Origin: Lophium mytilinum
Lineage: Eukaryota; Ascomycota; Dothideomycetes; Mytilinidiales; Mytilinidiaceae
Reading direction: 5' to 3'
Length of the DNA: 64,000 nucleotides
NCBI GenBank assembly: GCA_010093605.1
Contig: MU004196.1
Span: 1,379,454 to 1,443,453, forward strand
The stretch's first letter is position 1, and every line of letters starts with the position of its first letter. The notes under the pieces were generated by a model. It had not been told where the DNA came from. It saw only the letters and a list, made by a program, of their open reading frames with translations, and searched no databases. This document shows, in pieces, positions 10,434-63,068 of this stretch. The translations under genes and the position numbers were made by a program.

Positions 10434-11041
10434 TCACACTGTAGAAACTTGCAAACCTTCTCTCCGGGCAGTATACTCCTGGGCGGCGGGGCTGACAGGG
10501 AGTGAAGACACTAGTGAAACAATTAGTATATGGTAATACAATTAACGGGGGGTATTTCTTACGCTTCTGGCTACCTGGCAACTTTTCCCAGGAGCCATCG
10601 TCGAGACGCTCGTAGACGGCGCACGCGATGTCATTGCGATCGCCCACATACGCGACAAGCGTCACATTGAGGCGCCGTAAGTTGGTGCTTATCTGCTGGC
10701 AACGGGCGGCGATGTTGGCTGCTTGCGGAAGTAGATAGACAGCAGACTGGACATCAAAGGCCATAGTCAGTGGAGTGCGCTGCAAAGAGTAATGTGGTAT
10801 GCCTTACCAGACGGTCACTCGGTCTGTATGATACACGGATGGCCACCTCATAGGTGCGCGTGCTGCCCAGTTCTGCAAGCAAAGCCAAGTAGTCGTCCGC
10901 AGTTTGAGGGTCATTGGCCATGAACCCCACGTCGATGGCATCGCATTCCTTGGCTTCAGGAGTGGCCAACAACACGGCTAGCTGCTGTTCAGACAGGGCT
11001 TGGCCGTCGGGGGTGGCAAGCAGACCTGGATAGTTCGACAT
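10434..11041 (-). CDS. Family A paralogue A2 (unknown function), three exons
   Basis: Exons 10808-11041, 10563-10746 and 10434-10510 encode 164 aa. Intron 1 (61 nt) is phase 0 at the family position; intron 2 (52 nt) is phase 1 with a TACTAAT branch site. Family features are YEVAIRVSYRPSDRL just before intron 1, and NLRRLNVTLVAYVGDRND followed by AVYERLDDGSWEKL after it. The third exon encodes a short tail (SSLPVSPAAQEY) unlike other members except that A4 also has a third exon at the same place. Start chosen at 11041 because the frame upstream lacks ATG. It lies head-to-head with A3, 350 bp apart. Function not recognised. Confidence 0.65.
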
Positions 11042-11391
11042 TTCGTCTGCTGTGGGCGTGGTTGAAGAGTTGGTGGAGTTGGCTTTCGTGGGCGGAGGAG
11101 GCGAGCGAGAGTTGTTGAAGACTGGTGCAGGCAGCTTCGAAATGTGTCCACGGTAGCAGAATAACAGCAGAACGCCATTGACGTGACGCACAATGTTTCG
11201 ATATGATCTGTTAGCCGCGAGTAGGCGTCTCGGGTCTTCGGAAGCCGTAACTCTTTTCGCTAGACAGTCAAACTCTCCACCGCTCTACACGAACCTCCTC
11301 TCCAGCCTCCACAGCCAATTTTCATCCCACACAACCAACCAACGTACACAACTCCTTCAAACCCACATAACCACACTCCATCACTCTCACA

Positions 11392-12900: not shown

Positions 12901-13509
12901 CTAGGCGGAGCTTGTGGAGGGAAGCAATGGATCTTCCGTCGCCGTTAGTGAAGTACAGAGATGAATTGTAGAAACTACTCACGTTTGAGTGTCTTAGTAT
13001 CCAGCTCCCAGGCGCCTTCCCCAATTCGCTCATAATCCGCGAAGGTGGTCTGGACAATGCCAATTTTGAAGCCCACGAGGGTTATGGTGAGTCGTCTCAG
13101 ATTCGGACCTATTGTGGCGAGAAGCTGAGTCATTGGGCCCTTTGGTTCTCTGAAGGGGAGTAGGTCCAAAGTCATCTGTGTGCATCAGTCGCTGGTCTAG
13201 CATGTAGATAAGAGGTGGGTTGCGTACGATGTCCCTGTCGGCTGGGTATTCGATTTGAATGACCAACTCCCAGATATACTTGCTATTCATGCTTTCGAAG
13301 AGACGCAAGTAGTCCCTGGCGCACGTAAGGTCGTCTATCAAAATTTTGACCTTGACGGTTTGTAAACCTTTTGCCAATGGAGTTGCCAGGTACACTGCGG
13401 CCTGCTGCTGGGTGAGAAGATTGCGATTGGATGCGGCTAGCAATACAGCTTCTACGGAGAGGGGGTCGCCTCTGGTTAAGGGAGCGGAGGGGTTCGCTGA
13501 GCTGGCCAT
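12901..13509 (-). CDS. Family A paralogue A4 (unknown function), three exons
   Basis: Exons 13228-13509, 12983-13175 and 12901-12932 encode 168 aa. Introns are 52 nt (phase 0, GTACGC donor) and 50 nt (phase 1, CACTAAC branch). Exon 1 holds LLTQQQAAVYLATPLAKG, then LQTVKVKILIDDL and YIWELVIQIEYPADRDI. Exon 2 holds IGPNLRRLTITLVGFKIG and FADYERIGEGAWELD. The third exon gives a short tail, HPLLPSTSSA. The splice pattern and both introns match A2, so A2 and A4 are probably sister copies. No function recognised. Confidence 0.68.
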
Positions 13510-14290
13510 CGTGCTTTGAAAGTTTTGGTTTGGCTTGCAAGGGGTGAGACCTTGATGGGAGATGTGATGCTGGAAGACCAGGTTGTACCCTCTGGAAGAG
13601 AGCGAAGGCGAACATTTTGTACATACGTGCGTAACCTGATTGCTAGCAGCTTGCTAGCATCGTTGCTTGCTGTAAGTGATTGCTCTAGTCCAACGTAGTC
13701 ACGGCCACGAGGTCTCATGACCGCGTAAAAGCAGCAAGTCCGCGATGATTACCGTCAATAGGGGGGTTGCACGTAGATCCAGACTTCGAGAATCAAAGCG
13801 TAGGAACCAAACTATCGTCATAGCTACTTTGACTACGTTTTACCGCTGTTTGTGGGGTCTCAAGGCACTCTCACGAATCTGAGGTGGGGGGGCATCTGCC
13901 GGCTTGAATGCTAGGGTGTGGATCTCCAGAATACGGACACGAGCTCGGGGCCGCCGATTCGATTCAGCACCTTAAGCTCTTTACATCATAGATCCCCTGG
14001 ATTTAGTAGGTTCGGAGGTGCTTAAAGGGTATAACAAGAACGCCAAAGCGCCTGCCTCAATATAGAACATGTTGCTCTTTACATTATAGGATGTTTATAT
14101 GAATATGTGCGGGGGTATTTTAGAATGATGAACACCCCGCCAGATTTATGTAGAAATACAGTAAAGTTCCAAACTAAAGATATAACAACATAGACTATTA
14201 CCGGACGGAGCGTTGCTCTCGAGCATTACAGCTAGGCCACAACAAAACATTGAGAAGAGGAGACTTTGTGCTATTCGGACACTATAATTA
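13510..14290. other. Intergenic, nothing recognised
   Basis: No supported gene. The composition becomes AT-richer toward 14.1 kb, where low-complexity repeats begin. Confidence 0.45.
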
Positions 14291-14293
14291 CAA

Positions 14294-14510
14294 GTACAAA
14301 TACAAACAAAGTTACAAAAGCAACGCAAAAACGCCCCCAACGCCCACACAAAACCCACAAAAGTACAAATACAGACGGAATTACAAAAGCAGAAAGGACT
14401 AACGCCCCAACGCCAGCAAAAAACCCCACAAAAGTACAAATACAAACAAAAATACAAGAAAAGACAGAAGCTCCCCCAACACCCACGCAAACCCACAAAA
14501 AGACCACACC
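14294..14510 (+). repeat. Tandem repeat, about 70 bp, three units
   Basis: The word GTACAAATACARAC starts at 14294, 14363 and 14434 (spacing 69 and 71 bp), each followed by a C/A-rich block around CCCCCAACGCCMACRCAAA. The third unit is partial. A related single block (CACCCCCAACGCCCGCACG) occurs 15 kb away near 29815. Confidence 0.6.
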
Positions 14511-20858: not shown

Positions 20859-21495
20859 CTATTCCCGCCCAAACAACCGAGGTCTTCCCCAGAGCGTCTC
20901 ATCCCGTCGCTGCTTCTTCGGCACATGCTCGAATGACTCCAACAAGCACCAAACATCCGGGCTCTCCGGGTCTCCAGGGTCCCGCACAAACGGCTCATAC
21001 TCGTAATAAGCGGTCCGTCGACCCGCGGCGTAGCTTGCATCACCGCCGACGTCTCGGACGGTGATGATGATCCTGCAGACGTTCACGCCCGCGCCGTTGG
21101 CCAGGGCGGCGATGGCTGCTGGCGCCGCGTCGGGGTTGGACTTGACCCAACGCGTCCACTACAAGAGGAGTTAGCTAGACGATTCGTGCGTTTTGGGTTG
21201 AGTTGGAGCTTACCTCCTGCCAGACGTTGCTGCTCGTGTACAGCGTGAGGTCTAGCTCATCCACCGCGGGGCTGTCGAGGGCTTCGAAGGGCGCGAGGGC
21301 GGCGGCGACGGACTCCCAATCTCGGACAGAGTAGGCGACCTTCACGGTCGTCTGGGCCTTGGTGGCCGGGGCAGCGACGAAGACGGCGAGCTGGTCGAGG
21401 GAGAGGGTGCGTTTCTCGGCGGCGAGCTGCAGGACGCGGGGCTCGGCCAGCTCGAGGAGAGGAAGGGGTGGCGGTGGTGGCAGCATGGTCGACAT
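20859..21495 (-). CDS. Family A paralogue A8 (unknown function)
   Basis: Exon 1 is 21214-21495 and exon 2 is 20859-21158; 193 aa. The 55-nt phase-0 intron starts GTAAGC, has GCTAACTC as branch site, ends TTGTAG and contains stops. After a Pro/Leu-rich start, exon 1 has LSLDQLAVFVAAPATKAQ, TTVKVAYSVRDWES and VDELDLTLYTSSNVWQE; exon 2 has GVNVCRIIITVRDVGG and AAGRRTAYYEYEPF. The TTVKVAY strand matches A3 (RTVKVAF) and A4 (QTVKVKI). The C-terminal 45 residues are charged and not shared. An ATG three codons downstream is an alternative start. Confidence 0.67.
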
Positions 21496-22047
21496 TTTGA
21501 AGATGGGTGGAGACGGCGTGCGGAGGTTTGTGTGATGTGGTGCCTGGAGCGAGGAAGATCTGGCTGTGTGGACTTTTGAAGGAAAGGCAAGGTGCACGGT
21601 TGCCCTAGGCTTGCACCTTCACCCAGACAGAATGTTGGACGAGTGAAGCGACTTCTATCCTTCTTATTGCCGCCATTCAGAATAGCTGGCTAGCCAGTCG
21701 GTTGGCCCCTGAAACCCAACTGATGGGACATTCTTTGGCAGTAGCGCTGGCGAACACAGCGCCTCCTGGCGGCATTGGAGCGTATATGAACATTTGGATG
21801 CTTATGCTTAATTTAATATAGCTTTTGACGGGCATTTATCACAGTAAAGAGATCAGGCCGCCATGAATCGTGTCTAGCCAGTATATCTGCTACTCGTACT
21901 TCACACACCCGACTCATTCGCCCCTCGAACAGCTACGAGAGCGCATGCCCTAGAGCTCCACGAGAGGGCGTCGTTCAGCATTCGCAACCGTCGCCTCCTC
22001 CTGCACAAGCTCCGCTCATTGCCATTATACCCACCCGTCTCGCCGTT
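21496..22047. other. Intergenic, nothing recognised
   Basis: Upstream region of A8. No gene, RNA or repeat seen. Confidence 0.45.
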
Positions 22048-28559: not shown

Positions 28560-29660
28560 ACTGCAGGGCCACTCCTGACGGCGGCAAAACGGTGCTACCA
28601 CCCCATTCCAGGCCAAAGTCAGATATCCGGGGTAGCAAATGCGACGTTGTTTGATTCTCCGATTCTTCTACCAAGCCACCCCTATCATCACCATCACCAC
28701 GGTCCTAAGCTCTTCTCTGGGTACTACAATGTCCGAGCTACCGAACCTGACTTCGGCTCAGGTTCACAGTCTACTGCTGGGCCGCTCCCGACGGTATTGA
28801 AAAGGTACGCCTGCCCACTTTCAAATTATCTTCAGATACCCGAGGTAGGATCTCTGACATTGCTGCATTTATTAATCCTATCGCTGAGCCACCCCTGCCA
28901 TTGTCATTAGCACGTTCGCAGCCTATCTTCTAGGATGGTTCAATTTCCAAAGTAGCAAACCTAGCATTGGTTCCTTGCCCCAGTCTCCTGCTGAGCCACC
29001 CTTGTCACTGCCATCAACATACTCCTGAGCTCTTTTCTGGGGTCGTCCAATTGCCGGGGCAGCGGACCTGACATTGTTTCTTTTTTCAATTCGACAGCTG
29101 GGCCACCCCTGCCACTGTCATCACCATACTTCCAAGCTTCTTTCCGGTATAATCCAATTTCCGTGGCAGCGAACCTGACATCGCTCATTTTCTCCGTTCT
29201 CCCATTGAGCCGCCTCTGCCGCTGTCATCACCACCTCTCCAAGCTCTCGTTTGGGGTTGTTCAATATCCAAGGTAGCGAGCCTGACATCGTTCCTTTTTC
29301 CAATCCTACAGCTGGGCCACCCCTGCCACTGTCATCACCGTGGTCCGAAGCTTCTTTCTGATACGGTCCAATATCCGCGGTACCAAACCTGACATCGCCC
29401 ATTTTCTCCACTCTCCCGCTGAGCCGCCTCTGCCATTGTCATCACCGTGTTTCCAAGCTCTTTTCCGGGGTTGTTCAATATCCGAGGTTCCGAACCTGAC
29501 ATCGACCGTTTCTCTGATCACACTGCTAGGCCACTCCAGCCACCGTCGTCTTGATGTTCCTAGGCTCTTTTCGAGGTAGTCCAATATCGGCCGCGACGGT
29601 CTTGACATCGTATGCCTCTCGCGAGTCGTAAGTTGAGCCACCTCAAACGTTATCAACCAC
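28560..29660 (+). repeat. 107-bp satellite, about ten units
   Basis: The core GCCACCCCTGCCACTGTCAT (variants with GACGG) starts at 28568, 28675, 28781, 28888, 28995, 29102, 29209, 29316, 29423, 29530 and 29637. Ten successive spacings are 107 bp except one of 106. Each unit also carries CAATATCCGNGGTNNCGAAC then CTGACATCG. Despite base divergence there is almost no length drift. The core joins this array to those at 18.3, 20.2 and 27.3 kb. Open frames inside it are by-products of the repeat. Confidence 0.9.
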
Positions 29661-30004
29661 TCCGCAACCAGCTTCCTTCGATATCCTAATTCTCACTCAT
29701 CAGTAGTCAAGCATCAAGTTCACGTCTCACATCAGCCTCTGATCAAACGCAGACAGAAACAAGCTTCATTCCAGCCCCGCAGGGCGCACCGTCTACTCCG
29801 CACCCATCCCCGCAAAGACACCCCCAACGCCCGCACGAAACCCACAAAAACACAAAACTGCATCACCGATTAGCACGCATCCTCCCTCTCACACCTTCTC
29901 CAAGAAAGACTTACAAAAACCCGCAAAACTCCACGCCTCGGCACGCCAGCCACCAAGGAATCCAGAAAGTCGGGTCGCTCCGAGCGCCTTACAGACCCCC
30001 CTAC
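29661..30004. other. Intergenic, one isolated repeat block
   Basis: Contains one block near 29815 related to the 70-bp repeat at 14.3 kb (CACCCCCAACGCCCGCACG then AAACCCACAAAAACACAAA). Otherwise nothing recognised. Confidence 0.45.
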
Positions 30005-31088
30005 CTACCCTACCTCCCACCACCCCCAGCCACTCTTGTAACCAGCGCCCGCACCCGACAGCGTGCCCCCTTCGGGCACAAAGGCCACCCGGACTCGCAC
30101 GCCGCGGGATTGAAGCGCTGGCCACGAAGAGCTGCGGCTAGGAGCAGTAGGAGGAGGGGAGGTTGGAGGGCCATGCGCGGTGTCCGGGGGCGCGGTCACC
30201 TTGCCCAGTAGATGGGCGCCGGGCTGTGTTGTGAGGTTAGTCAAAGGTGTTCCGATGAGGGGCTGGATTGGGGGGGACGTACATGACGGCCGGCAGGGCG
30301 GGCACCGGGGGGATTGGAGAGGAAGAGCTGCCTCAATGTCAATGGTTGTTCTGTGCTCGAAAGGGTTTGTGGAAGGGCGTACCGCGCCGGTGGTGGAGGT
30401 GAGCGAAGCCTCCTACGAGGCGCTCGCTCCGGCGCTGAGGGCGGAGAGGTCGGGGCCCGAGGGAGGGGAGGAGCCGGCCTAATTTGGTCAGTTGTTGCTC
30501 TTTTGTCTCAAATGGGGGGGGAGTTGACTTACGCCGGGCGCGTCGGCATTGGCGGCGCTGGAGGCGCAGGCCTGGATATGTCAGTCGTTGCTCTTCTTCT
30601 CGTATTAGTGGTGGAGTGCACTTACGCAGGCCGGGTCGGCATTGGCGGCACGGGCCGCGCAGGTCTGCGTTATGTCAGTTATTGCTCTTCATCTCTCCAT
30701 TATGGGTGACTTACGCCGGGCGGGTCGGTGCAGGCGGGGCAGCCAGGACCAGCCTGAATATGTCAGTTACTGCTCTTCTTCTCTCGGTTGTGCTATAGTC
30801 TTACGCAACGCGGGAGGGAGCTAGCGGCTCGTTGGCCCTCATGGCCCGGAAGAGGTCCACCTCAACGGCGGTGTCCTCGAGGACGTCACCCCTCGAGGAC
30901 CCGCGAGCCATATGCCCAGCGAGGGCGCGCAGCTCGGCCTCGGGCAGATCCTGTGAGTTTTGTTAACAGTTGTCCTTGAAGCGGCTGCAGACTGCTGGTT
31001 TGCTCGTCCCAATCGGGACGCAGTGACCGCAAAGAGAGGAAGATCTTACAGGATAGATAGATCGGGACGGGGCGCGGCCGTCGGACAT
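30005..31088 (-). CDS. Proline-rich 221-aa protein encoded by mini-exon array
   Basis: Eight exons: 31050-31088, 30805-30950, 30715-30753, 30626-30664, 30533-30571, 30383-30478, 30283-30331 and 30005-30223 (666 nt). Exons 3-5 are each exactly 39 nt, begin and end in phase 2, and encode successive 13-residue repeats of the type APAPPAPPMPTRP; exon 6 begins with a fourth, diverged copy. Introns 2-5 (51, 50, 54, 54 nt) are alike, each with GTAAG and most with GAAGAGCARYRACTGACATA before the AG. The N-terminal part is acidic (DLPEAELRALAGHM, VLEDTAVEVDLFRAMRANEP); the C-terminus is Ser/Pro/Gly-rich. No family recognised. Proline repeats could bind SH3/WW-type domains (inference). Strong frame and phase consistency supports the model. 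Confidence 0.7.
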
Positions 31089-47409: not shown

Positions 47410-48273
47410 TCAACAGTTCTTGAAAACGAAATTGAACTTCTCGCAGGCCACCTTCAAGGCATTCATGTTCTTTCGTGCGCGCTTGCCACCCGTCACTTCG
47501 ACTGTCCACTGGGTGACCTCATCCGTCCGCATCAGCTTGAATATGGCCATGATCTTTTCGAACAAACCCTTCTCCTCTTCGCGCTTTGGACTGGGCTTTG
47601 GTTCTTTCTGTAACGGAGGAACAATGATGTGACCGAGTGCCACAGTCGCGTAGCGCTTTGCGCCTTTCCACTTCACAGCCGACGCCGCAACGAAGATCTC
47701 GACGTGGCGCCTCTGGTGCGTAAGCTGCTGCTCGGTTTCATCATCAGTATGCATTCCTTCGGGCCATAAATCCATGAACATTTATACCCGGGCAAAGTTT
47801 TCGAGGGCGTTACGCTGTGTGGCATGGAATGCCACACCAGATTGACCGTCGGGGTAGTAATTTCCTAGGCGGGCATCCACAAAAGCCTCCACCTCTGACG
47901 ACCCTCCAAGAAACCCTAGAGCCTCTTCGTGGATCTGTTTATTCACACCGAGAATCGCCTGATAGGGCACCTTCTGGCCATACTCGGGGTCTTCGCCAGT
48001 GTATGCCATGACCAAGCCTCCCTCTTCAATGCCGTTGTCGCTAATGTGGTCGGCCTCGCCGGGCGGTCGAACCAGAACAAGCTTGTAGATCATGTTCCTA
48101 ATCTCTCCTGGAAGGCGTAGGAAGCTCGCAGCCTCGGTGGATGCATCTGATTGTGGGCCTCTGGATTGAGCGGCGTCGCTCGACGCTTCACACATGGCTT
48201 GGGCACGGATCCGGTCGGTGTTGCTGGCTCCAAGAGAATCAGCGCCTTCGGTCTTACGAGGGCTCGAATCCAT
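47410..48273 (-). CDS. Family B paralogue B1 (F-box-like), interrupted by an in-frame stop
   Basis: The ATG at 48273 opens a frame with the family B start FLRLPGEIRNMIYKLVL (residues 52-68), the NKQIHEEALGFL motif, and NALENFARV. A TAA at 47782-47784 follows; the same frame then continues with HQRRHVEIFVAASAVKWKG, KRYATVAL, VTQWTVEVTGG and a KVACEKFNFVFKNC end, all of which align with B2. Either the gene is a recent nonsense pseudogene (CAA to TAA would be a RIP-type change) or a 60-nt in-frame intron (GTATAA donor, TACTGATG branch, GAGCAG acceptor) removes the stop and 19 conserved codons. Intact length would be 267-287 aa. Confidence 0.6.
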
Positions 48274-49066
48274 ATTAGAAGCTTACTTGGAGCAAGTTGA
48301 TTGAAGCTGCAGTAAAAGATGAGGTGTTGGTCGGTTGTTATTGGATAGGGTGGGTGTGGTAGGTGTTGTGCGTGGAGACAGTGTGTGGTGTGTCTGTGTT
48401 CAAGGAGACGAGGAGGTTTCTTTATGTGCCTTCGGCAGAAAATTACGGTGGTGAATCGCCCTCGAGACCCGGAGATGGAACCGGCCCCTTTCACTCGCAG
48501 GCCTAGTCGCTCCTACAGCTCCTTGTCCCGTGACAGACCCATCGATCAGTTTTCTTCACAACACCCACTCAAATTGAGGTAAGATCAAGTTTTGTAGGAA
48601 AATCTTCGGAGATTCGGCTTGTTTCGTCGTAGAGTCACTCATCTACTGCTAGGAGTATTGTTAGATTGCAACCCGCGTATCCCCTGAAGAAGCATTGATT
48701 ACTTCTAATATAGCTTGCAAGTGCTTGCTCCGCCCTTTCACCAAGGTTTGTTTCACAGCTTGTTCCAACTGATTGCAATGGATGTTGAAATCGATCAAAC
48801 ATTTCTACTTGTAGTAGAATCACGATCTTGACAGACTTTTGCTCACTCAAGCACATTTATTATAACTTATTATAGGGAAAGAATCGTCAATTTAGCTCAT
48901 CAACCCTGAGCTCGCTATCTTAGCCTAGCTCATACACCCCAGGAGCTTCTGGTAATCCGTCCACAAAGGACGCAAAGTATAGCTTAGTCTACTTCTTTAC
49001 CACTACATGCCACGCTTTGCTGGCAACTTATAGTGTATAAGCAGTATGCTCTCTTCACCCCTCGAA
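48274..49066. other. Intergenic, nothing recognised
   Basis: Upstream region of B1 and downstream region of B2. No gene or repeat seen. Confidence 0.5.
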
Positions 49067-49927
49067 TCAAATATCGCAATCCCGAACATTGAACTTAAAG
49101 CCATGTGCTTCGCACTTGGTCTTAAAGGCATTCACGCTGAGCTGCAGCTCCGTGGACTGATGCGCCAGATTCCCAAAAAAGTCGACCACAATTGTCCACT
49201 GGGTAATCTTGTCAGATTTCATCACATTCAGGACGTCCTCCAGGTGATCCTCGGCCTCTTTTCTCCCCACCACCTCCTCGATGGAAAGGTTACCCTTCTC
49301 GAAGATTTTCTGGTGGAAGATCAAGGCAAGGTAGACCGTGACCCAGCGCTTCTTGCCAATCCACTTCTCCTGGGCTGAGCCCGACACAAAGGTCTCGAGA
49401 TGGCGCCTAAGGAGAGACAGAACCCAGCAGGTGCCCCCACGCTCATCACGCCGTTCGGCATCCTTCTTCCAGACAATTTCGCGCTCGATGTTGACATGGG
49501 CATAATTGAGCAGGCCATTCTGCACGGTCTCATCGATATGTTCGGGCATATCGGGCAGATCGTCGCCCCATGCTTCCAAGTTGACCGCAGCCGTCCGTTC
49601 GAGGGCTGCCGACGCCTCTTGAGAAACCTGCTTGTTGACCTGAAGAAGAGCCAGGCCGGCGACTTTGTCGTCTTCATCTTCGCGGGGCCTCATAGGCTGA
49701 TGATGCGACATGGGAATTGCATGCTCGTACACCATATCACGCAGCTCCTGCGGGAGCTGTAGGAATGGATGGAAGGTGATCAACGGACCTGCGTTTGCCT
49801 TGCGGGCAATCCTACCGGACATCCGAGTAGGTCGAGTCCAGGCTTTGTACTGCTTCTTTACAACCCGTCCGGAAGAGGTCTTGCTGAGGCTCGAAGCCTC
49901 CTTCATGTTGTTCTCACCGCGAGGCAT
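49067..49927 (-). CDS. Family B paralogue B2 (F-box-like), 286 aa
   Basis: ATG at 49927 (upstream the frame is open but lacks ATG). Intronless. A basic N-terminus (KKQYKAWTRPTRMSGRIARK) precedes FLQLPQELRDMVYEHAIP, then VNKQVSQEASAAL, LLNYAHVNIEREIVW, RRHLETFVSG, KRWVTVYLALIF, ITQWTIVVDFFG and a C-terminal KCEAHGFKFNVRDCDI. This order defines family B in the window. The LPxELRxxVY segment is the F-box-like/2EXR-type start common in Dothideomycete multigene families whose function is mostly unknown. It looks complete. Confidence 0.75.
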   Translation of the reverse strand: MPRGENNMKEASSLSKTSSGRVVKKQYKAWTRPTRMSGRIARKANAGPLITFHPFLQLPQELRDMVYEHAIPMSHHQPMRPREDEDDKVAGLALLQVNKQVSQEASAALERTAAVNLEAWGDDLPDMPEHIDETVQNGLLNYAHVNIEREIVWKKDAERRDERGGTCWVLSLLRRHLETFVSGSAQEKWIGKKRWVTVYLALIFHQKIFEKGNLSIEEVVGRKEAEDHLEDVLNVMKSDKITQWTIVVDFFGNLAHQSTELQLSVNAFKTKCEAHGFKFNVRDCDI

Positions 49928-51073
49928 CGTAGTCTTACTGAACTTTTCGGAGACTGTGATCGTGTTGAGCACTTCCGTTGCAGCGGTGCAGTGTTTGCGA
50001 GTTGCTTGTGGTGTTGGGGTGGGGGCAATGTTTTGATCTTTGATGATGTTGATCGAGAGAGGGAGCACGCGGCGTATTTATGGACCTCCCATGTTAGCAC
50101 CGGAGTGAATTACTGGAGGCAACGTCTGCTCACAGAGTCGACATTCTGCGCACTCGGTGCGCAGGTCTTCCTACGCTGGTGAATCATTACAAGCCCCGGT
50201 CCGCTCATATGTTCGACATTGTCAGCCTTCAATGCGAGGGTGTACGAGTAATGCCAGTTATGACATATGTTACCTTATCATCCAACAATACTACAACCCT
50301 GAACTCTTTACGCTTTCACCCCAGCACCTTGACAGAAGTATATGCACCCTCGCTTACCGCCGTTCGAGGTGCCTTAGCCTTCTCAAAAAGTTTCATTAAA
50401 ACGCTGGCTCCTTGTGAGTTCAAATCAGAAGATTTCCACATGCTGAGCATCAGAGTACTTGCCGCCGTCTGTGGGGCCATACACACCATTAACTGTTACG
50501 AGATAAGAAACATAGCCTACACAATTTGCGTCCCAGTACTATATGTGTCTAAACATTGCGCCGTGGCACAGCAGCTGGACATTGACCTCACAATGCTGAT
50601 AAGCTGATATCTACTACTAAGAGGCTGTGGATCGCCAGCAAATTTTGCTTACTCACACTTTCAGACATTGTCACATTACGAGATTAAGACTCTAGGAATG
50701 AGCATGTATAGAATGGACACCAAAGGCCTACGCTTCCTGGAATTCCATAATTGATAAGTCCAGGGGAGGCCCGGGAGTATAATTCTGACCCTAAAACGTT
50801 AGTCTCGATTCGAGTCCTGTAACTCCTTACGTCAAAATATTTGTGAAAAAGTAGGTCCAGGGGCATCCAGAGAAGCAATTCGTTCTCGAAGCCCTAGTCT
50901 CAGATTAGAGCCCGTAGCTCATGGCATGTAAGAAATCCGAAAAGAATGAGTGCAGGGGCATCCCAAGAGCCCAGCTTCACCTCAAAATCACATTGCTTTA
51001 CGGCAGATTCATGCCCTCGAGATGTTACAGCACGTGCTGCCGTGCTCTACACCTACATTCATGCTTCCCCCCT
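49928..51073. other. Intergenic with short tandem repeat
   Basis: No gene supported. Three units with CAGGGG(C/A) cores start at 50761, 50858 and 50954 (spacing 97 and 96 bp), each followed by an AGAGCCC/CCTAGTCTC-type block. The remainder is AT-richer non-coding sequence. Confidence 0.5.
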
Positions 51074-51895
51074 CTAGATCACACATGCATACGGCGCCAC
51101 GACGTACCCAAATCCGTCCTTCTCGCATCCTTCCTTGATCCACCTCACCAGAGAGCTTGGCACGATGCCAGGAGCCGGCACCTTGAGGATCCACCGGATG
51201 GTGGTGTTGGTTTCCATCATGAGCTGGAAGCACCGCTTCCATCCCGCGACAGCCTTCCAATTCACCCGCACAAAACCCCCCCGTCCGAACATATACTCCA
51301 GTTTGTACCAATGCCACGTACAGAAGTCCAGCGTCACCTCACGCTCAAGGGCGTTGTAGGTGGTAGTAGAAACGGCAACAATACTACCAAGCGTCTCCTC
51401 TACTGGCGTTATGCTGTCCATCCAACTGAATATTGATTCCGGACAAAGAACGGAAATCTCAATCTTTCTGAAATTCTCGATAGCCTCTTTCGTCATAGCC
51501 AGCTGTCCCCTATTAGGCCGTGCTACATCGTCCCTTTCGACGCAAACGGGGAGCCGGCACGTCGCTCTTCGTGCCAGCATAGCTGCGGTTTCGTCGTGGA
51601 TTTGACGGTTGACAGCCAGGAGGGCAAACCGCTCAGGCTGCTTGGAATTGACTAGTTCGTGCGCGGTGGCAGGGGTGAAGGTCGCGTTGGGTTCGAGTAC
51701 CAGTTCGTAGACGGCGTTGCGAAGTTCTCCCGGGAGCTCGAGGAACTTCGTGAATGATTCGGTTGGGTTTCGTGTGCGGAGTCGCTCGGCGGCTGCGGCT
51801 TTGCGTGCTTTGTTTGCTCGTTTTGCTTTGCGGGCTTTCGCGGCGCGGGCCATTCCGATTTTTCTATCGCGCTTACGCTTTGTCTGGGACGGCAT
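51074..51895 (-). CDS. Family B paralogue B3 (F-box-like), 273 aa
   Basis: The start at 51895 (MPSQTKRKRDRKIG) is preferred; an in-frame ATG at 52036 would add 47 residues of Pro-rich sequence. A lysine/arginine/alanine-rich N-terminus (KARKAKRANKARKAAAAERL) could be a nuclear localisation signal. Then FLELPGELRNAVYELVL, LLAVNRQIHDETAAML, EAIENFRKIEISV, a beta-rich middle, and TIRWILKVPAPG in place of the usual QWTIxV. Intronless. It is the most diverged of the tandem members in the middle third. Function unknown beyond the F-box-like start. Confidence 0.75.
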   Translation of the reverse strand: MPSQTKRKRDRKIGMARAAKARKAKRANKARKAAAAERLRTRNPTESFTKFLELPGELRNAVYELVLEPNATFTPATAHELVNSKQPERFALLAVNRQIHDETAAMLARRATCRLPVCVERDDVARPNRGQLAMTKEAIENFRKIEISVLCPESIFSWMDSITPVEETLGSIVAVSTTTYNALEREVTLDFCTWHWYKLEYMFGRGGFVRVNWKAVAGWKRCFQLMMETNTTIRWILKVPAPGIVPSSLVRWIKEGCEKDGFGYVVAPYACVI

Positions 51896-52337
51896 CTTTG
51901 GGGTGGAGGAAGAGCAAAGCTGCGGAAAGATCTTGTAATTGATGCAAGAAGCGCGTTGGATGATGGCACGACTTATGGGTAGTGGTGGAGGTATGGGGGG
52001 AGGCTTAGGCAGAGTGCAGGTAAACGGTAGCTTCATTGGATCTGTAGCTTTATTCGTAGAACAGTAGGTATGTGCTAGGAGTGAAAGGTCGTGTGAATGC
52101 GCATCTCGCACTACTGAATGGTGAATTAGTGACTCCCGAAGTGCCTTCGGTTCGAAGAAAGGACGGTATCTTGGAAGTTCTTAACTTCCTGCGTTATTCG
52201 ATGTCAGGCAAGTTCCGAAAAGTACATGCTTGAGAAGATCTCTGGACTTTAGACAAGGTCGTCTTCCAATTCGGGCTGTTTGTCGTCTATGGTGGCTCCT
52301 TACGCCGTCAAGGTATATGCACCGAGGACATCGTCCT

Positions 52338-52921
52338 CAGGGCTCGGAATCAACCGATCGATCGATCAGGCCTCTCAATATCAATCGAATCGACTGCTTA
52401 ATCAGCAGAGGCCCAGATCAATCAAATCAATCGAATCAATTGATTCATCATCGAAGAATCGACATGGTTAAAGGTATTTAAAGGCTTAGCGCAGCGCGTA
52501 GGTAGTATCAAGGTATTTACTTAGAAATAATATTTTTTTAGTTAATATCTAAATCCCTATAAGAGGCTCCTTTAAACTCTTTCTAATTATTAGTAGTAGT
52601 TAATAATAATGCGGCGGTATAGTACTACTCTATTAGAAAGACACGTAATAGGAGAGGCACCTCTATAGTCACGTAAGGCAGAGTCACGTGATATAGTACT
52701 TACATAATATTATATCCCGGCGAAGCACGGCCAATAAACCGCGTCTTAAGCAGCTAAAGTGCTATTATATTTACACCTTCAACCATGTTGCTTTCAATTG
52801 ATTAGGCCTCCTGAAATCAATCAATTGAACCTTTTCCAGACGGCTGATCAATTAATCGAATTGCCAAGACTTCGATTGATTTCGATCAACCGTTCGATTG
52901 GTTAATTGATTCCGAGCCCTG
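52338..52921. mobile_element. Non-autonomous hAT-type MITE, 584 bp
   Basis: Both ends carry a perfect 16-bp terminal inverted repeat CAGGGCTCGGAATCAA. The element is flanked by a perfect 8-bp target duplication ATCGTCCT (52330-52337 and 52922-52929). An 8-bp duplication and a CAGGG start are typical of the hAT superfamily. The subterminal 120 bp on each side are full of AATCGA/TCGATT words in opposite orientation and end at CATGGTT/AACCATG. The centre (52.50-52.75 kb) is very AT-rich with TA-rich words, resembling RIP-affected DNA. It encodes no transposase. The intact ends and duplication suggest a fairly recent insertion. Confidence 0.88.
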
Positions 52922-52929
52922 ATCGTCCT

Positions 52930-53394
52930 CCATGAGTCGATCGAAGGCATTCGCATTTACGTCTGTTTGTGGTTTGGCCATAGTTTCGTGCGTCACGTGG
53001 GGTCCGTAACCATGGGTTGAGCGTTCGAGGCGTGGTTGATCCTCGGTTAGAAGTGGTCGTTTGGTCGAGGTAACGTAAACAATAGCCGTATCGCGATAAG
53101 ATGAGTGGAAAGAGGAAGTAGTGAAATTTTCGGTGTAGAAAATATTTCTGGTGCGTCATTGGAAAAGAGCGTACGAAAGGAGGAAAGAAGTTTCAGCCTG
53201 TAGGCATAATATCATGGTCTAGGCAGTGAGATTAGAAGTCTGTATAGGACCGAGATAAAAGCTGGGCATACCTTGCAACTGCTTGCGGTACACCGATAGG
53301 CTTCAAAACACAACAAGAAATGTAAGGGCTGACGCAGGAGAGATTATTTGACCTAACAAATACTTGCTAGCTAGGGAGCTCCTTACACTGGTGT
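52930..53394. other. Intergenic, nothing recognised
   Basis: Between the MITE and the 3' end of the 586-aa F-box gene. No gene seen. Confidence 0.5.
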
Positions 53395-55155
53395 CTAACG
53401 AGCAGCCGGAGCAAGCCTGGAGCCGGAGCAGTATACCGGTGTGCCCTCGAACGGCGCCACCAACTCCTCCAACCTCTTCTCCAACCCCTCTTCCCCCTTC
53501 TCATACGTGAAGACCGTCTTCGGAGGCCCCTGATTATTGATACACTCATTCCACCGTACATCCTCATCCCAACCCCACCGCATCTCCTCCGACTCCCCCT
53601 TATACGGGACATCACCCGCCGTACTTATCAACGTCACCTGCACCCCGTACCCATCCGCCAGCCGCATGAACGCGACAATATCCACCCCCCACTTCTCCAG
53701 CACCGCGATCTTACCTTCGAGCTTCAGCCTCGTTAGACCGGGAAAACAACGCGCTTTCATCACCAGAACCTCTTCAAGCGCGGTGAAAAGGTGCCGCGTC
53801 ACGAACCCCGTGATCTGCTCCCCATAGCCCAGCGCCCCAAGATCCCGTACATGCGTAATCCACAGCTCCTCCAGCGCGGGCGGCAGCGCGCGCCACAGCT
53901 TTGCGCGGTAGTCCGTGACTGCGGCACCCTGCGTCCCCTCCGGCGGCGGCGAGAACAGCCCATCATGGCCCCACACGAACACGGGCGCGAACTTGAGCTG
54001 CCGGAGCGCGGTAAAGTGCGTGAATTGCAGCGCACACGGCGTCTCCTCGTCGTGGTCTTGCGTGTCCTGGTACGGGTAGTAGTCCTCGTGGGAGAGGGCG
54101 AGCGCGGTCAGGTGCGGCGCGTGCGGGCCAAGCGCAGCGAGGATCTTCTCGTGTTGGACGGGAGTCCAGGCCCAGGAGCAGCCGATCTCGTACATGAAAG
54201 TTTTCAGGGAGCCGGGGGTGGCGATGCGGAGGACACGAAGGAGGTCGGGGGAGTAGATCTTGCTGGCGCGCACCTCGATGAATTCGACAGGTGACGATTC
54301 GGGCGGGATGGCGGCGAGGATGTCGTGAACGGCGTCTTGGCCTTCTACTCCGACGCGGTAGGTGTAGAGATGGCGTAGCGCCGGGAGGGCGAGGGCGCCG
54401 AAGAAAAAATCGGGTTGGTTGGGATACTTGTCGTCTTCGCCGGCCATGAAAACGTCGGTGAGGGATGCGAAGGGGGTGGGGCAGTTGGGATGGTCGCTGC
54501 CTGGTGACGTGTGTAATCGATTCTTGTGTAGGCTGAGGCGCTGGAATATACGGAGCATGTAGCTGTTTGGGTCAGAGTAATCTGGGCTTAGGTCTAATTT
54601 ACGGAGTTTGGGAAGCCCGGCCAGGAGTAATGCTAGCACGGCGCCTTCGTCACGTCCATTCTTGACGTCCTCGAACCAAGCGGTGGCTTCCTCGTCGTCC
54701 TTTGCATACTCGGCGACCCTGGCTCTGATAATGCTGTGGAGATCACCATGCTCCGGCCAATTGATTCTGTGGTCTTTATATTCAGGTTTGTCACGGTCGA
54801 GGAAGGGTGCAGGAGCAGCGGCCTTCTCATCCCAAGAGCCTCGAATGGAGAATGACCGGACCAGGGCTGCGTGAGAGGGAGATTGCCACATGTGGAGAGT
54901 GAGCGGGAGAAGATGTCTCAGCCCTACTCCGAATTCGATGTATTCAAGGAAGATATCGGAGTAGAGGTGCGGCGTTGCAATCCTACTGATCTTTTTGTTG
55001 GTCAAGCAAAGTGCGGCTAGGCCTGAAAACTTAGGGGACTCTGGCTTCGGGCTCCTTGGTTCGTAGCGGAGCCATGGTTCTGGACGCAGAGGGACGAATT
55101 GGACTATGCGGTCGATAAGCTCCTCAGATAGAGAGCCATCGAGGGAGAAGGGCAT
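53395..55155 (-). CDS. F-box/leucine-rich-type protein, 586 aa
   Basis: Intronless, ATG at 55155. The N-terminus has an F-box-like domain (about residues 8-65: LSEELIDRIVQFVPL, then LAALCLTNKKISRIATPHLY SDI), the usual layout of ascomycete F-box proteins that recruit substrates to SCF ubiquitin ligases. The rest contains irregular leucine-rich segments (LLAGLPKLRKLDLSPDY, ALPALRHLYTYRV, FTALRQLKFAPVF, ALEELWITHVRDL) consistent with a degenerate LRR solenoid. No membrane segment. It appears complete. Substrate unknown. Divergent from the zinc protein gene, 661 bp apart. Confidence 0.85.
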   Translation of the reverse strand: MPFSLDGSLSEELIDRIVQFVPLRPEPWLRYEPRSPKPESPKFSGLAALCLTNKKISRIATPHLYSDIFLEYIEFGVGLRHLLPLTLHMWQSPSHAALVRSFSIRGSWDEKAAAPAPFLDRDKPEYKDHRINWPEHGDLHSIIRARVAEYAKDDEEATAWFEDVKNGRDEGAVLALLLAGLPKLRKLDLSPDYSDPNSYMLRIFQRLSLHKNRLHTSPGSDHPNCPTPFASLTDVFMAGEDDKYPNQPDFFFGALALPALRHLYTYRVGVEGQDAVHDILAAIPPESSPVEFIEVRASKIYSPDLLRVLRIATPGSLKTFMYEIGCSWAWTPVQHEKILAALGPHAPHLTALALSHEDYYPYQDTQDHDEETPCALQFTHFTALRQLKFAPVFVWGHDGLFSPPPEGTQGAAVTDYRAKLWRALPPALEELWITHVRDLGALGYGEQITGFVTRHLFTALEEVLVMKARCFPGLTRLKLEGKIAVLEKWGVDIVAFMRLADGYGVQVTLISTAGDVPYKGESEEMRWGWDEDVRWNECINNQGPPKTVFTYEKGEEGLEKRLEELVAPFEGTPVYCSGSRLAPAAR

Positions 55156-55816
55156 TGCGGGTAGAAGAGATGAAAGGGTAGAAGAGAATGGAAAGAATTG
55201 ACTATGGAAGCCGTGTGTGGAATGGAAAATGAAGCTCTGGGCTGGTTGATATAGGTGACTTGGGAAAAGAGTGGCAATGGAGGATGTGCGGGAGCTGAAG
55301 GCAACGGTGGGTCCGGCGCGATCGACGGGGATGCTGCCTGCTTCTTAGCAGCGTTGCGACTGGGCATCTCACAAAGATTACGGCAGATATTCTGGCCATC
55401 ATCATCTAGCCCTGATGCCGGCAGGATGGCGATTCGGAGAGTAGCTCTGCCTAACATCTTACCATCGATAGGAGGAGAATTTGGGGGCCGATCGTCTCGC
55501 CGAGCGAGCTGATATTCTAAAGCAAGATCCTGACAAGGGGAGGATGAACTGCAAGCGGCCTCTACAGAATGTTGCTTCAGTATCAGATGCAATGCGGATG
55601 ATGCATCGTTATAGACGAGGGATGGTGTTGAGGTCCTAACGCTATTGGTTGCGGGTGTGCTTGCTGCATAAATCTGCGAAGGTTGTGCAGTGCAGGTGCC
55701 AAGGCTCGTAAAAAACGCAGGCAGGCAGCCCAACTTCAACCTCATCTCGCCGCTCTTCACTCCACCAACAACCACAACCTCCTCCAGACAACACCCACAA
55801 CCCACAACCCGCAACC
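55156..55816. promoter_or_regulatory. Divergent intergenic region (F-box gene / zinc protein)
   Basis: A 661-bp interval between two ATGs pointing away from each other, so it must hold both promoters. A CA-rich stretch (CACAACCACAACC type) lies just 5' of the zinc protein start, as is common for leaders of highly expressed fungal genes. No specific factor site is claimed. A 236-codon minus-strand frame here is probably spurious. Confidence 0.45.
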
Positions 55817-56235
55817 ATGCCTATCTCAAAGAAAGACCGCGTACGGTGCCCTCTTCTTTCCTCTCACTCTCTCACTAACATCTCCCAGCGCACCCGCGAG
55901 CACAAGAAGGGCGACGCAGCAGGCACCCGCGCCGCCGTCCGCCCCAACGGCACACCAGTCAAGGCCCCGAAGCCCACGAGCATCGTACGTCCTCTTTATA
56001 TATTCAAACATCATACCTATTTTCTAAACTTCGTCTTCCTCTTTTCGCCGTGATTATCAGATTAGGCTACAGGTTGGGCTCTGCTGACCGCTAACTATTC
56101 TAGTGCCAAAACTGCCGCAAAGAAATTGTCAGCACCATGCGCGTCCAGCTCGAAGACCACGCCTCCACCCACTCCGGCGAGTGGACCAAGGAGAAGTGCT
56201 GGCCGAACGACTTCCCGACCGAAGCCACCACCTGA
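55817..56235 (+). CDS. Small At2g23090-like zinc-binding protein, 83 aa
   Basis: Exons 55817-55840, 55889-55984 and 56104-56235, with phase-0 introns of 48 and 119 nt. The product starts MPISKKDRRTREHKKGDA, a basic 4F5/SERF-like N-terminus, and ends with a zinc motif CQNCRKEI, then QLEDHASTHSGEW (C-x2-C...H-x3-H). This pairing is the conserved eukaryotic At2g23090/ZNF706-like small protein; fungal copies are about 80-85 aa, so it looks complete. A role in translation or nucleolar function has been suggested for relatives, not established here. All splice sites are canonical (GTACG donors, CAG/TAG acceptors). Confidence 0.88.
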
Positions 56236-57021
56236 ACAATGCCTGCGTTGCAGTCTGAAGGGACTTTTCGAGGGACTGGCGAGACACATACATGGTCATT
56301 TCGAGCGGATATGACATGATGAATGAGACGAGATTGGCGTTTGCTGACGATTGTTATCGGGAATACAGATGAGGCGATACCAGCAGAAATGAGAATGGCT
56401 TAGACGATACCAGTGGAGATATGGAGCATACGGCGTTAGTAGTACCCGCTACGGCGTTTATCAACTACTCTATATCATGGCATTCGCAGTATGTGAACGG
56501 TTTGAATACGCGTCTGAGTAACATCTACACTGTGAGTCAGGAGCACAAAGGTGAGTGGCGTGGCTTTGTTCTATATCTGAATTTAGATTGTGAGACTTTT
56601 TCTCTCTCTCTATCGCCCTCTAACAGCTACTAATCTTAGGTGAATAAGTTAGGTGCATTCCGTCCTTACTTTCTATTCAATGTTTCTTCTAGAATGTTTT
56701 CTTCAATGCCCAGATGCGTATAGTATACGAGCCCTCCCCCTTGAGAATCTCTATAAATCGACTTCAATTTCCCCACCCCCCTCAAGAATTTCTAGGATCA
56801 ACTTCAATCTTCTCTTCCATGACCTGAACTCATTCTCTAGACTACAGTCGTGTCAAAAGTTCCATTTCTAGTCCGCGTCACGTGATATAACCATGATTTA
56901 TAAGCCTCTACCCCGTGCCGTGTGTACGCCCTATGTGTACTCCCACGGTAAAATTATCCATAAAGTCTCGCCCAACTTTCGAACACTCGCCCACATCCTC
57001 AGATCACACGTTCTTCATACA
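56236..57021. other. Intergenic, nothing recognised
   Basis: 3' region of the zinc protein and 5' region of the epoxide hydrolase. Contains a CT-rich run near 56.60 kb; no gene seen. Confidence 0.5.
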
Positions 57022-58356
57022 ATGTCCTCCTTCGCAACCCCTCCCCCCGGCGCCTCCGCCTCTCTCAAACCTTTCACAGTCAACATCGCCGACTCCCGCG
57101 TGTCGGAACTCCATCAGCTCGTCAAGCTTTCCAAGATCGACATCCCAACCTACGAGAACCAGCAAACCGACGGCCGCTTCGGCATCTCCCGCTCCTGGCT
57201 CATCGACGCGAAAGCCGCCTGGGAGAAATTCGACTGGCGCGAAAGCGAGAAATACATCAACTCCTTTCCGCACTTCAGCATGCCCGTGCCCGACGCGAAG
57301 AGCGGGAACGCGGAAGGGGTGTTCAACCTCCACTTCGTGGCTTTGTTCTCGAAACGAGCGGATGCGATCCCGATCGTGTTCTTGCACGGGTGGCCGGGGT
57401 CGTTCCTCGAGTTTCTGCCGATGTTAGAGCTTGTAAGGGGGAAGTACTCAGAGGAGACGCTGCCGTTTCATGTTATCGTGCCGAGTTTGCCGGGGTTCGT
57501 GTTCTCGGATGCGCCGCCGGTAGATCGGGAGTTTGGTGCGGAGGATGTGGCGAGGATTGTGAACGCGGGCGTGAAGATGCTGGGGGTTGGGGAGTATGTC
57601 GTTCAGGGTGGTGACATTGGGAGTCGGATCGCGCGGATTTTGGCGGTGAGGTATCCAGAGGTCAAAGGTAGGAGCTCCCTCATCTTCCCTTCCCACCATA
57701 CTAGCACTCCCACTCCCTCAATTCCCCTGCCGACGTGCCCGCAAAGACTACTAGCGCTACCAACCCCATCAAGCCTCGCGCAGAACAGCAAAGCTAACCA
57801 CCTCCGCACAAAAGCCGCTCATCTAAACTTCTGCATGATGTCCCCTCCCGCCGACCTCCCCCCATCTTCCGTCACCTCGCCGGCCGAGCAAACCGGCCTC
57901 ACCCGCCTCGCCGCCTTCACATCCACCGGCTCCGCCTACATGCAAGAGCACAAAACCCGCCCCGCGACCATCGGCCTCGCACTCTCCTCCTCTCCCTTGG
58001 CCCTGCTCGCGTGGATCGGCGAGAAGTTCCTCGCCTGGACAGATATCCCCCCGGCCCTCCCTGTAATCCTAGAAGCCGTGTCCCTCTACTACCTTACCGA
58101 CACCTTCCCTAGGAGTATCTTCACGTATAGGGAGGCGGGCATCGCCGATGATCCGGCGTGGTTCATCGACAAGCCGGTGGGATTCAGCTGGTTTCCAAAG
58201 GAGGTCGCGCCGGTGCCAAGAGGATGGGTGGAAAGGACGGGGCGGGTGGTGTGGTGGAGGGAGCATGGGCGCGGGGGGCATTTCGCGGCGTTGGAGAGGC
58301 CCGAGGTGGTGTGGGTGGATGTGGAGAGGTTTGTTGGGAGTGTTTGGGGGAAGTGA
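57022..58356 (+). CDS. Epoxide hydrolase (EHN + alpha/beta hydrolase), 395 aa
   Basis: Exons 57022-57667 and 57815-58356, joined in phase 1 (VKAAHLNFC). The 147-nt intron has a GTAGGA donor, GCTAACC branch and AAAAG acceptor. Residues 15-125 are the EHN cap (FTVNIADSRVSELHQLVK, DWRESEKYINSFPHF). Oxyanion motif HGWPG at 122-126; nucleophile Asp198 in GGDIGS; the proton-donating Tyr257 in AYMQEHKTRP; catalytic His371 in GGHFAALE. It should open epoxides to diols through a covalent ester, as for microsomal-type fungal hydrolases used in detoxification. An in-frame upstream ATG at 56893 exists but would add 43 unlike residues. The intron is a multiple of three with no stop. Confidence 0.92.
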   Translation: MSSFATPPPGASASLKPFTVNIADSRVSELHQLVKLSKIDIPTYENQQTDGRFGISRSWLIDAKAAWEKFDWRESEKYINSFPHFSMPVPDAKSGNAEGVFNLHFVALFSKRADAIPIVFLHGWPGSFLEFLPMLELVRGKYSEETLPFHVIVPSLPGFVFSDAPPVDREFGAEDVARIVNAGVKMLGVGEYVVQGGDIGSRIARILAVRYPEVKGRSSLIFPSHHTSTPTPSIPLPTCPQRLLALPTPSSLAQNSKANHLRTKAAHLNFCMMSPPADLPPSSVTSPAEQTGLTRLAAFTSTGSAYMQEHKTRPATIGLALSSSPLALLAWIGEKFLAWTDIPPALPVILEAVSLYYLTDTFPRSIFTYREAGIADDPAWFIDKPVGFSWFPKEVAPVPRGWVERTGRVVWWREHGRGGHFAALERPEVVWVDVERFVGSVWGK

Positions 58357-58396
58357 GAGGTGGAGGCGCCGAGGGTGCGGTATGCGGAAACCAGGC

Positions 58397-58462
58397 TACC
58401 TTTTGATCGAGGGACTACCTGCTAACTGAGGTTCCCCTGACAGTGGCATGTGGCTTCCAAAG
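58397..58462 (+). repeat. Isolated copy of the 65-bp repeat module
   Basis: Begins TACCTTTTGATCGAG, continues CTACCTGCTAACTGAGG and ends CCCTGACAGTGGCATG, matching the modules at 27.3-28.1 kb, about 30 kb away. It lies 40 bp after the epoxide hydrolase stop. Confidence 0.6.
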
Positions 58463-58590
58463 GAGCGATCAAGTGTTCGTATATTGCTACATCGTCTACA
58501 AGCGTACTTGTGTCCTAGCACTATGACACAATTATTCAAATCCAATGGATCACGTGGCGAATGAATGATGCTCCAACTAGGTGTGCGTGA

Positions 58591-62474: not shown

Positions 62475-63068
62475 CTCGAAGTTGATTGAAGAAGAGTTGT
62501 ATTGATTTCTGGTGTGGAATAGAGTGAGAGTGTCTTGGGTACTGATGGGGTGCTAGGTGGTGCGGTGTCCTTGGGCAGGTGGTAGGGAACTGATGCAAGG
62601 GGTCGTTTTTATAGGGACCTTAAAAGGCTAGAATATACCTTAAGCAGTGAATCGAAGGCGCAATGGATACCCGCCCACGGCGCCGCTTTACCTACTCGTC
62701 TTCTTTGAATTCACTGCAATGCCTTGCACTGACTGCTTACAACGTCTTGCAGTGAACGCTCATAAAATTCCGCCCATCCGATAAATCGGAGGTTCAACAG
62801 CATCGTATCACTCAGTTCCTATAACACTCTCCTTGACACCCACCACACCCCCGCAGTAGGCTTAGTCGACTTCTTCAATTGATAAAGGAGACCTTCGGTG
62901 CTTCCAATTCACCGGTACCAAGCGTTCTCAGAGGCTACAAGTATACTTCTAGGGAGCAGGTTCGCACTCCTTTACAGCATCACATCTTCCCCCACCCCAC
63001 CACACAGCCCACCCACTCTTCGCTCCAATCACAACTCGTTCACAAGTCTTCGTTTAAGGGCATTCGCA
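62475..63068. promoter_or_regulatory. Divergent intergenic region of B5 and B6
   Basis: 594 bp between the opposed ATGs of B5 and B6, so it should carry both promoters. CA/CCAC-rich sequence precedes each start. A word around CTTGCAGTGAACG/CTTGCACTGACTG near 62.73-62.76 kb is repeated. No factor site is claimed. Confidence 0.4.

What the first reader, a model, noticed from the sequence alone, without database searches (positions are those of the whole stretch)
30005..31088. Mini-exon array: three 39-nt exons, each encoding one 13-residue proline repeat, with related introns
Exons 3, 4 and 5 are each exactly 39 nt, all phase 2, and the introns around them share a GAAGAGCARYRACTGACATA-like 3' half. 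The natural reading is tandem duplication of an intron-plus-exon unit of about 90 bp, so protein repeat number can change by unequal exchange or exon skipping without a frame shift. An exon of 39 nt also starts the gene. This is an unusual clear case of exon-unit duplication creating a proline-rich repeat domain in a fungus.
Basis: partly seen in the sequence, partly recalled or inferred. Interest (0 to 1): 0.85.

Follow-up and report, generated by a model that had tools for sequence, protein, structure and literature searches.

The report
Duplicated mini-exons building a proline repeat
A small, apparently fungal gene carries three back-to-back copies of a 39-base exon with its intron, each adding one 13-residue proline-rich repeat to the predicted protein; it is a neat example of a known way in which genes grow.

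Summary
On the minus strand, 30804-30479, four short introns with canonical signals (51, 50, 54, 54 nt) separate three exons of exactly 39 nt, all phase 2. The four introns are homologous even without donor, branch site and 3' end; introns 1, 6 and 7 do not clearly belong. Their 20-nt block was found nowhere else in the 43-Mb genome at up to 2 mismatches, so they are not a dispersed introner family. Differences among exons 3-5 pile up at third codon positions (11 of 18 variable columns, P = 0.0009); those between introns 4 and 5 do not (6/7/6). Coding constraint thus stops at the predicted splice sites. Best reading: tandem duplication of an intron-plus-exon unit of 89-93 bp, copying a repeat that carries PxxPxR (SH3-ligand-like). 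The array also includes the start of exon 6 and perhaps the end of exon 2; the 39-nt first exon is probably unrelated. The stated 3' end (30005) needs a GAG acceptor; a CAG acceptor 4 nt on gives a 156-aa protein ending at 30196. Splicing, skipping and copy-number change are untested. A new member of a known kind.

The parts
31050..31088 (-). exon 1, 39 nt, ATG start, ends in phase 0
   Evidence: splicing predicted, not observed
30951..31049 (-). intron 1, 99 nt, not clearly related to the array introns
30805..30950 (-). exon 2, 146 nt; its last residues (EPLAPSRVA) may be a founder repeat
   Evidence: DNA likeness weak
30754..30804 (-). intron 2, 51 nt, with GAAGAGCAGTAACTGACATA
30715..30753 (-). 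exon 3, 39 nt, phase 2-2, LVLAAPPAPTRPA
30665..30714 (-). intron 3, 50 nt, with GAAGAGCAATAACTGACATA
30626..30664 (-). exon 4, 39 nt, phase 2-2, PARPVPPMPTRPA
30572..30625 (-). intron 4, 54 nt, with GAAGAGCAACGACTGACATA
30533..30571 (-). exon 5, 39 nt, phase 2-2, PAPPAPPMPTRPA
30479..30532 (-). intron 5, 54 nt, diverged block AAAGAGCAACAACTGACCAA
30383..30478 (-). exon 6, 96 nt, begins with a further diverged repeat PAPPLPRAPTSPP
30283..30327 (-). exon 7, 45 nt, phase 2-2, if the GGCAG acceptor is used (49 nt from 30331 if TTGAG)
   Evidence: choice is inference
30196..30223 (-). exon 8, 28 nt with stop (156-aa protein); in the other reading it runs to 30005 (221 aa)
   Evidence: choice is inference

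Best explanation
A gene on the minus strand gained introns and protein repeats together. A segment of about 90 bp, holding one complete short spliceosomal intron and one 39-nt phase-2 exon, was copied head to tail about three times, so that each copy brought its own donor (GTAAG), branch site (CTGAC) and acceptor and added exactly 13 residues in frame. Shown by sequence: the array, the homology of its introns and of its exons, the canonical signals, and coding constraint confined to the exons. Inferred: that the introns are spliced and a protein is made. Function (inference, about 0.3): the basic proline-rich tail offers one PxxPxR motif, like class II SH3 ligands (recalled consensus), at 13-residue spacing, so copy number would set valency for an SH3-domain partner. 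A retained array intron gives Ala then stop at once, so such messages would end after 0, 1, 2 or 3 of the duplicated repeats, or be degraded. The confidence below is for the origin and the spliced coding gene, not for the SH3 function.
For: Exons of 39 nt and introns of 51, 50, 54 and 54 nt with GTAAG, CTGAC and CAG or TAG. Introns 2-5 alike in 6 of 6 pairs with donor and everything from the branch site on removed (p <= 0.0095). Exons 3-5 alike (p <= 0.0014) and varying mainly at third positions, 11 of 18 columns, P = 0.0009. Introns 4 and 5 differ 6/7/6 by the extended frame. The block is confined to this gene in the genome. PxxPx[RK] occurs 6 times in residues 51-135 against 1.75 in shuffles, P = 0.0027.
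Against: No cDNA and no relative from another species was available. The third-position test rests on 18 columns of three related exons. Control introns are not fully clean: intron 7 resembles intron 3 (p = 0.0035 and 0.0055) and intron 6 resembles introns 4 and 5 (p 0.0045-0.0125), uncorrected. A plus-strand ORF crosses most of the array (30314-30709). Exon 6 has lost PxxPxR in its first repeat, and duplication alone multiplies any motif; class I SH3 motifs are not significantly enriched (P = 0.065). No Pfam family at E <= 1.
Confidence: 0.85

Rival explanations
1. A non-coding minisatellite of about 90 bp whose unit happens to contain splice-like signals; there is no spliced coding gene.
For: TRF reports an ordinary tandem repeat, other tandem arrays lie nearby (28990-29504), and no relative or protein family supports the gene.
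Against: Third-position excess confined to the exons; exon length constant while intron length varies; donor, branch site and acceptor present in all four introns.
Confidence: 0.07
2. A plus-strand protein (ORF 30314-30709) reads straight through the repeat.
For: The ORF is open for 131 aa, and third positions of its frame coincide with those of the minus strand in exons 4 and 5, so the exon test alone does not separate the strands.
Against: Differences in the intron part are spread 6/7/6 over its codon positions, and units of 90 and 89 bp against 93 break its frame between copies.
Confidence: 0.03
3. The related introns are introner-like elements inserted one after another.
For: The introns resemble each other; [quoted passage not shown]
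Against: The 20-nt block was found only here in the genome at up to 2 mismatches and the array DNA has no second match. The four introns share phase and place in the repeat, and the exons between them are homologous.
Confidence: 0.03

Closest known systems
Intron gain by tandem genomic duplication (PMC3443670, passages; PMC4457414, passage)
   Same: Intron number rises by local tandem copying inside a gene; the review counts 188 events, in species that include the fungus Cryptococcus.
   Different: The usual case copies an exon segment with AGGT and makes a new intron; here the unit already holds a whole intron, and the exon copies add protein repeats.
Schistosome micro-exon genes (PMC8293314, passages)
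   Same: Runs of short symmetric exons that can be left out without a frame shift.
   Different: Those exons are described as 36 bp or less and the genes as schistosome-only; here 39 nt, one gene, no shown alternative splicing.
Aphid bicycle genes (PMC9168663, passages)
   Same: Small internal exons, nearly all phase 2.
   Different: Insect effector family with about 17 exons on average; no sequence link tested, and no signal peptide is apparent here by eye.
Repeat genes with one exon per repeat, such as collagen and titin PEVK (recalled)
   Same: Tandem symmetric exons that encode whole repeats.
   Different: Animal genes with far longer arrays and other sequences.
Fungal microexon of Xlr2 in Trichoderma (PMC11121469, abstract and section list)
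   Same: A very small exon in a filamentous fungus.
   Different: A single switch exon in a transcription factor, not a duplicated array.

Membership tests
Tandem intron-plus-exon duplication | adjacent exons homologous | tested here: met
   exons 3-5 identity 23-31 of 39, p <= 0.0014
Tandem intron-plus-exon duplication | adjacent introns homologous outside splice signals | tested here: met
   6 of 6 pairs p <= 0.0095
Tandem intron-plus-exon duplication | introns removed from the message | not testable with these tools
   no RNA data; signals canonical
Tandem intron-plus-exon duplication | fewer copies in relatives | not testable with these tools
   no fungal relatives among the collections; own genome has no second copy
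Introner-like elements | near-identical introns in many unrelated genes | tested here: not met
   block found only in this gene at up to 2 mismatches
Micro-exon genes | symmetric exons | tested here: met
   exons 3-5 39 nt, exon 6 96 nt, phase 2-2
Micro-exon genes | exons of 36 bp or less | tested here: not met
   39 nt against the definition seen
Micro-exon genes | alternative splicing of the small exons | not testable with these tools
   no RNA data
SH3 class II ligand (recalled consensus) | PxxPx[RK] core motif | tested here: met
   6 in residues 51-135 against 1.75 in shuffles, P = 0.0027
SH3 class II ligand (recalled consensus) | binding to an SH3 domain | not testable with these tools
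   needs an assay

The most novel reading that the evidence does not exclude
The array is a regulated repeat counter in a fungus. The GAAGAGCA block kept in introns 2-4 (slightly changed in intron 5) is a splicing control element, perhaps pairing with the complement GCTCTTC that straddles the intron 6/exon 7 junction (5' base 30328), as a docking site does for selector sequences, so that retention or skipping sets how many SH3-like repeats the protein carries.
Probability: 0.05. Interest if true: 0.75.

Novelty: new member of a known kind. Interest (0 to 1): 0.4.

Why it matters
Tandem duplication within a gene is reported as part of a class making up less than 1% of recent single intron gains in one well-studied fungus (PMC4457414, passage), so a clean case in which introns and protein repeats multiplied together is a useful natural example. 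The copies have diverged, with coding constraint visible on the exons and much drift in the first half of each intron, so the minimum kept for splicing can be read. Copy number between strains could be compared directly.

Tried and rejected
Introner hypothesis: rejected by the genome search of the block. A search for GTAAGT with ACTGACATA at intron spacing gave 2 matches, intron 4 and one on contig C10 that I did not follow up; its control gave 1.

Other arrays in the genome: GTRAGT three times at this spacing gave 33 matches, 23 in the reversed-pattern control. Of the 30 loci held, 29 were tested for an intron of at least 40 nt with a branch site in both units (L010 was too short for the position filter). 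3 of 29 passed: this array (L034) and two AT-rich loci, L030 and L035, with branch motifs CTAAT and TTAAC; only this array has CTRAC in both units (GC 0.33 and 0.31). Several of the 29 are overlapping matches to one array. Of the 3 matches without a locus, two lie in a 78-bp array on C23 whose intron-like stretch is 27 nt by eye, which I take as too short; the one on C24 was not examined. Searches looked at minus-strand loci in the wrong orientation and are replaced; one search failed on a file name.

Docking site: downstream of the array GCTCTTC occurs twice (5' base 30328 and 30132) against 0.06 expected (P = 0.003). Duplex energies of introns 2, 3 and 4 with the first site beat shuffles (P = 0.01, 0.007, 0.04), that of intron 5 does not (0.19), and none of the four does with the second site (0.12-0.53). 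For introns 4 and 5 other places in the pre-mRNA pair better. The pre-mRNA as a whole is not clearly more structured than shuffles (z -1.61, 2 of 20 shuffles as good). Kept only as the bold reading.

Extra conservation of the intron block: 3 of 20 columns vary in introns 2-4 against 11 of 13 third positions (P = 0.0002) and 11 of 18 columns just upstream (P = 0.006); for the first ten columns of the block the counts are 2 of 10, P = 0.003 and 0.055. The block was chosen because it looked conserved, so these values flatter it.

Relatives: searches of the own genome found only the gene itself; in bacterial and archaeal genomes 216 stretches matched a peptide pattern and none was confirmed; no Pfam family at E <= 1; 3 PDB chains at E 0.85-0.97, which I take as composition. 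No fungal protein or genome collection was available. Literature searches on mini-exons, repeats and intron gain in fungi (listings, not all papers opened) showed no case like this one, which is no proof of absence. SP7-like effectors were considered, but the section read (PMC11333574, section 6) describes one conserved intron before the first repeat. Gao and Lynch 2009 is not held; I know it here only as a citation.

Full report
What is there. Reading the minus strand from the ATG at 31088 gives exon 1 (39 nt), intron 1 (99 nt), exon 2 (146 nt), then exons of 39, 39, 39 and 96 nt; introns of 51, 50, 54 and 54 nt lie before these four. The four array introns begin GTAAG, carry CTGAC with 8 or 9 nt after it, and finish in CAG or TAG. 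Exons 3, 4 and 5 start and end in phase 2 and each encodes 13 residues: LVLAAPPAPTRPA, PARPVPPMPTRPA, PAPPAPPMPTRPA. That the host is a fungus is inference: a neighbour carries the 2EXR domain and another DUF3433, both recalled as fungal, and the genome is 43 Mb with short introns.

Is it more than chance. Two general programs find the repeat without a gene model. The shared 20-nt block occurs 4 times in the window at up to 3 mismatches against 0.03 expected, and in the genome only in introns 2, 3 and 4 at up to 2 mismatches, with 1 match for the reversed control. Introns 2-5 resemble each other beyond composition even when the donor and everything from the branch site on is removed: 6 of 6 pairs p <= 0.0095. 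The other introns of the gene served as controls and are not fully clean. Intron 1: p = 0.016 against intron 5 and 0.08-0.20 against the other three in the first test, 0 of 4 below 0.05 in the second. Intron 6: p = 0.0045 and 0.006 against introns 4 and 5 (0.0075 and 0.0125 in the second test), 0.15 and 0.053 against 2 and 3 (0.17 and 0.12); it may be an older copy. Intron 7: p = 0.0035 and 0.0055 against intron 3, 0.058 and 0.035 against intron 4, not below 0.05 against 2 or 5. All are uncorrected, 21 pairs per test.

Is it coding. Among exons 3-5, 18 columns vary: 2 at first, 5 at second, 11 at third codon positions (P = 0.0009). Between units 93 bp apart, exons 4 and 5 differ at 8 places, 6 of them third positions; the adjoining introns differ at 19 places, 6/7/6 by the extended frame. 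Constraint of the protein kind thus ends at the predicted splice sites. Third positions of the plus-strand ORF 30314-30709 coincide with those of the minus strand in these exons, so only the intron part tells the strands apart, and it favours the spliced minus-strand gene. Lengths of exons 3-5 do not differ; intron lengths do.

Extent. Exon 6 begins with a further, more diverged repeat (PAPPLPRAPTSPP; p = 0.008-0.016 against exons 3-5). The end of exon 2 (EPLAPSRVA) may be a founder: the likeness is weak in DNA (p = 0.03-0.08 against exons 3-5, 0.6 against exon 6), but PxxPxR lies in register, 13 residues before that of exon 3. The length of exon 1 looks like coincidence.

The 3' end. After exon 6 there are two acceptors 4 nt apart. 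GGCAG gives an exon of 45 nt, again phase 2 to 2, and a stop at 30196 (156 aa). Because fungal acceptors prefer CAG or TAG over GAG (recalled), and because the first choice keeps the phase pattern, I prefer 156 aa, without proof.

What the protein may do. Searches found no paralogue in the genome and no Pfam family. The tail is rich in proline and arginine: 37 P and 12 R among the last 94 residues of the 156-aa model, pI 11.6 for the whole. PxxPx[RK], recalled as the class II SH3-ligand core, occurs 6 times in residues 51-135 against 1.75 in shuffles (P = 0.0027): at 55, 68, 81 and 94, exactly 13 apart, then 114 and 128. Since duplication multiplies any motif, this excess is not independent evidence. 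The class I motif is not significantly enriched (4 against 1.72, P = 0.065). I infer a multivalent ligand for an SH3 protein, at about 0.3.

Splicing consequences. Each array intron follows GC and starts GTAAG, so a retained intron reads GCG TAA, alanine then stop. This follows from phase 2 and the donor sequence and needs no special purpose.

Comparison. Tandem genomic duplication is an accepted route of intron gain (PMC3443670, passages), and belongs to a class that gave less than 1% of recent single intron gains in Zymoseptoria tritici (PMC4457414, passage). Short symmetric exons mark schistosome micro-exon genes (PMC8293314, passages), small phase-2 exons the aphid bicycle genes (PMC9168663, passages). 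A functional microexon in Trichoderma Xlr2 is called the first described in filamentous fungi (PMC11121469, abstract and section list); it is a single switch exon. This locus resembles these in architecture; the introner definition and the 36-bp limit of micro-exon genes were tested and not met. Within this genome only this array passed the strict two-unit intron test (CTRAC in both) among 29 loci tested, from 33 pattern matches.

Verdict. A real exon-unit duplication that looks spliced and coding; origin well supported, function and variation open. A new member of a known kind, of moderate interest because it is clean and apparently fungal.

Noticed in passing
window 28990-29504: A 107-bp tandem array (4.8 copies, 70% matches) lies just downstream of the gene; on the + strand its units repeat CTGACAT, a pyrimidine run and AG, like a branch site and acceptor, but donors do not look conserved by eye.
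   Followed up: no
window 14292-14500 and about 29820-29850: A 69-bp tandem array has a unit containing CCCCCAACGCCC...AAACCCACAA, which by eye resembles a stretch downstream of the mini-exon gene.
   Followed up: no
window 47413-62552, minus strand: Six ORFs that match one another (47413, 47785, 49070, 51077, 58594, 61644) form a cluster of 2EXR-like genes; of the two scanned, one passes the Pfam 2EXR cut-off and one does not.
   Followed up: partly
window 10757-11284, 13033-13653, 21178-21618, minus strand: Three small ORFs related in a chain (35% over 102 aa and 34% over 61 aa); the first has no Pfam match.
   Followed up: partly
window 30328 and 30132, minus strand: GCTCTTC, the complement of GAAGAGC in introns 2-4, occurs twice downstream, once across the intron 6/exon 7 junction.
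   Followed up: partly
L038 1432-1751 (genome contig C23): A 78-bp tandem array (4.1 copies, 92%) whose units hold GTAAGT and, 27 nt on, TTTCAG.
   Followed up: partly
L022-L024 (contig C9) and L011 (contig C6): AT-rich tandem arrays of 85-bp units starting GTAAGTATAAG, GC 0.26-0.29, on two contigs.
   Followed up: no
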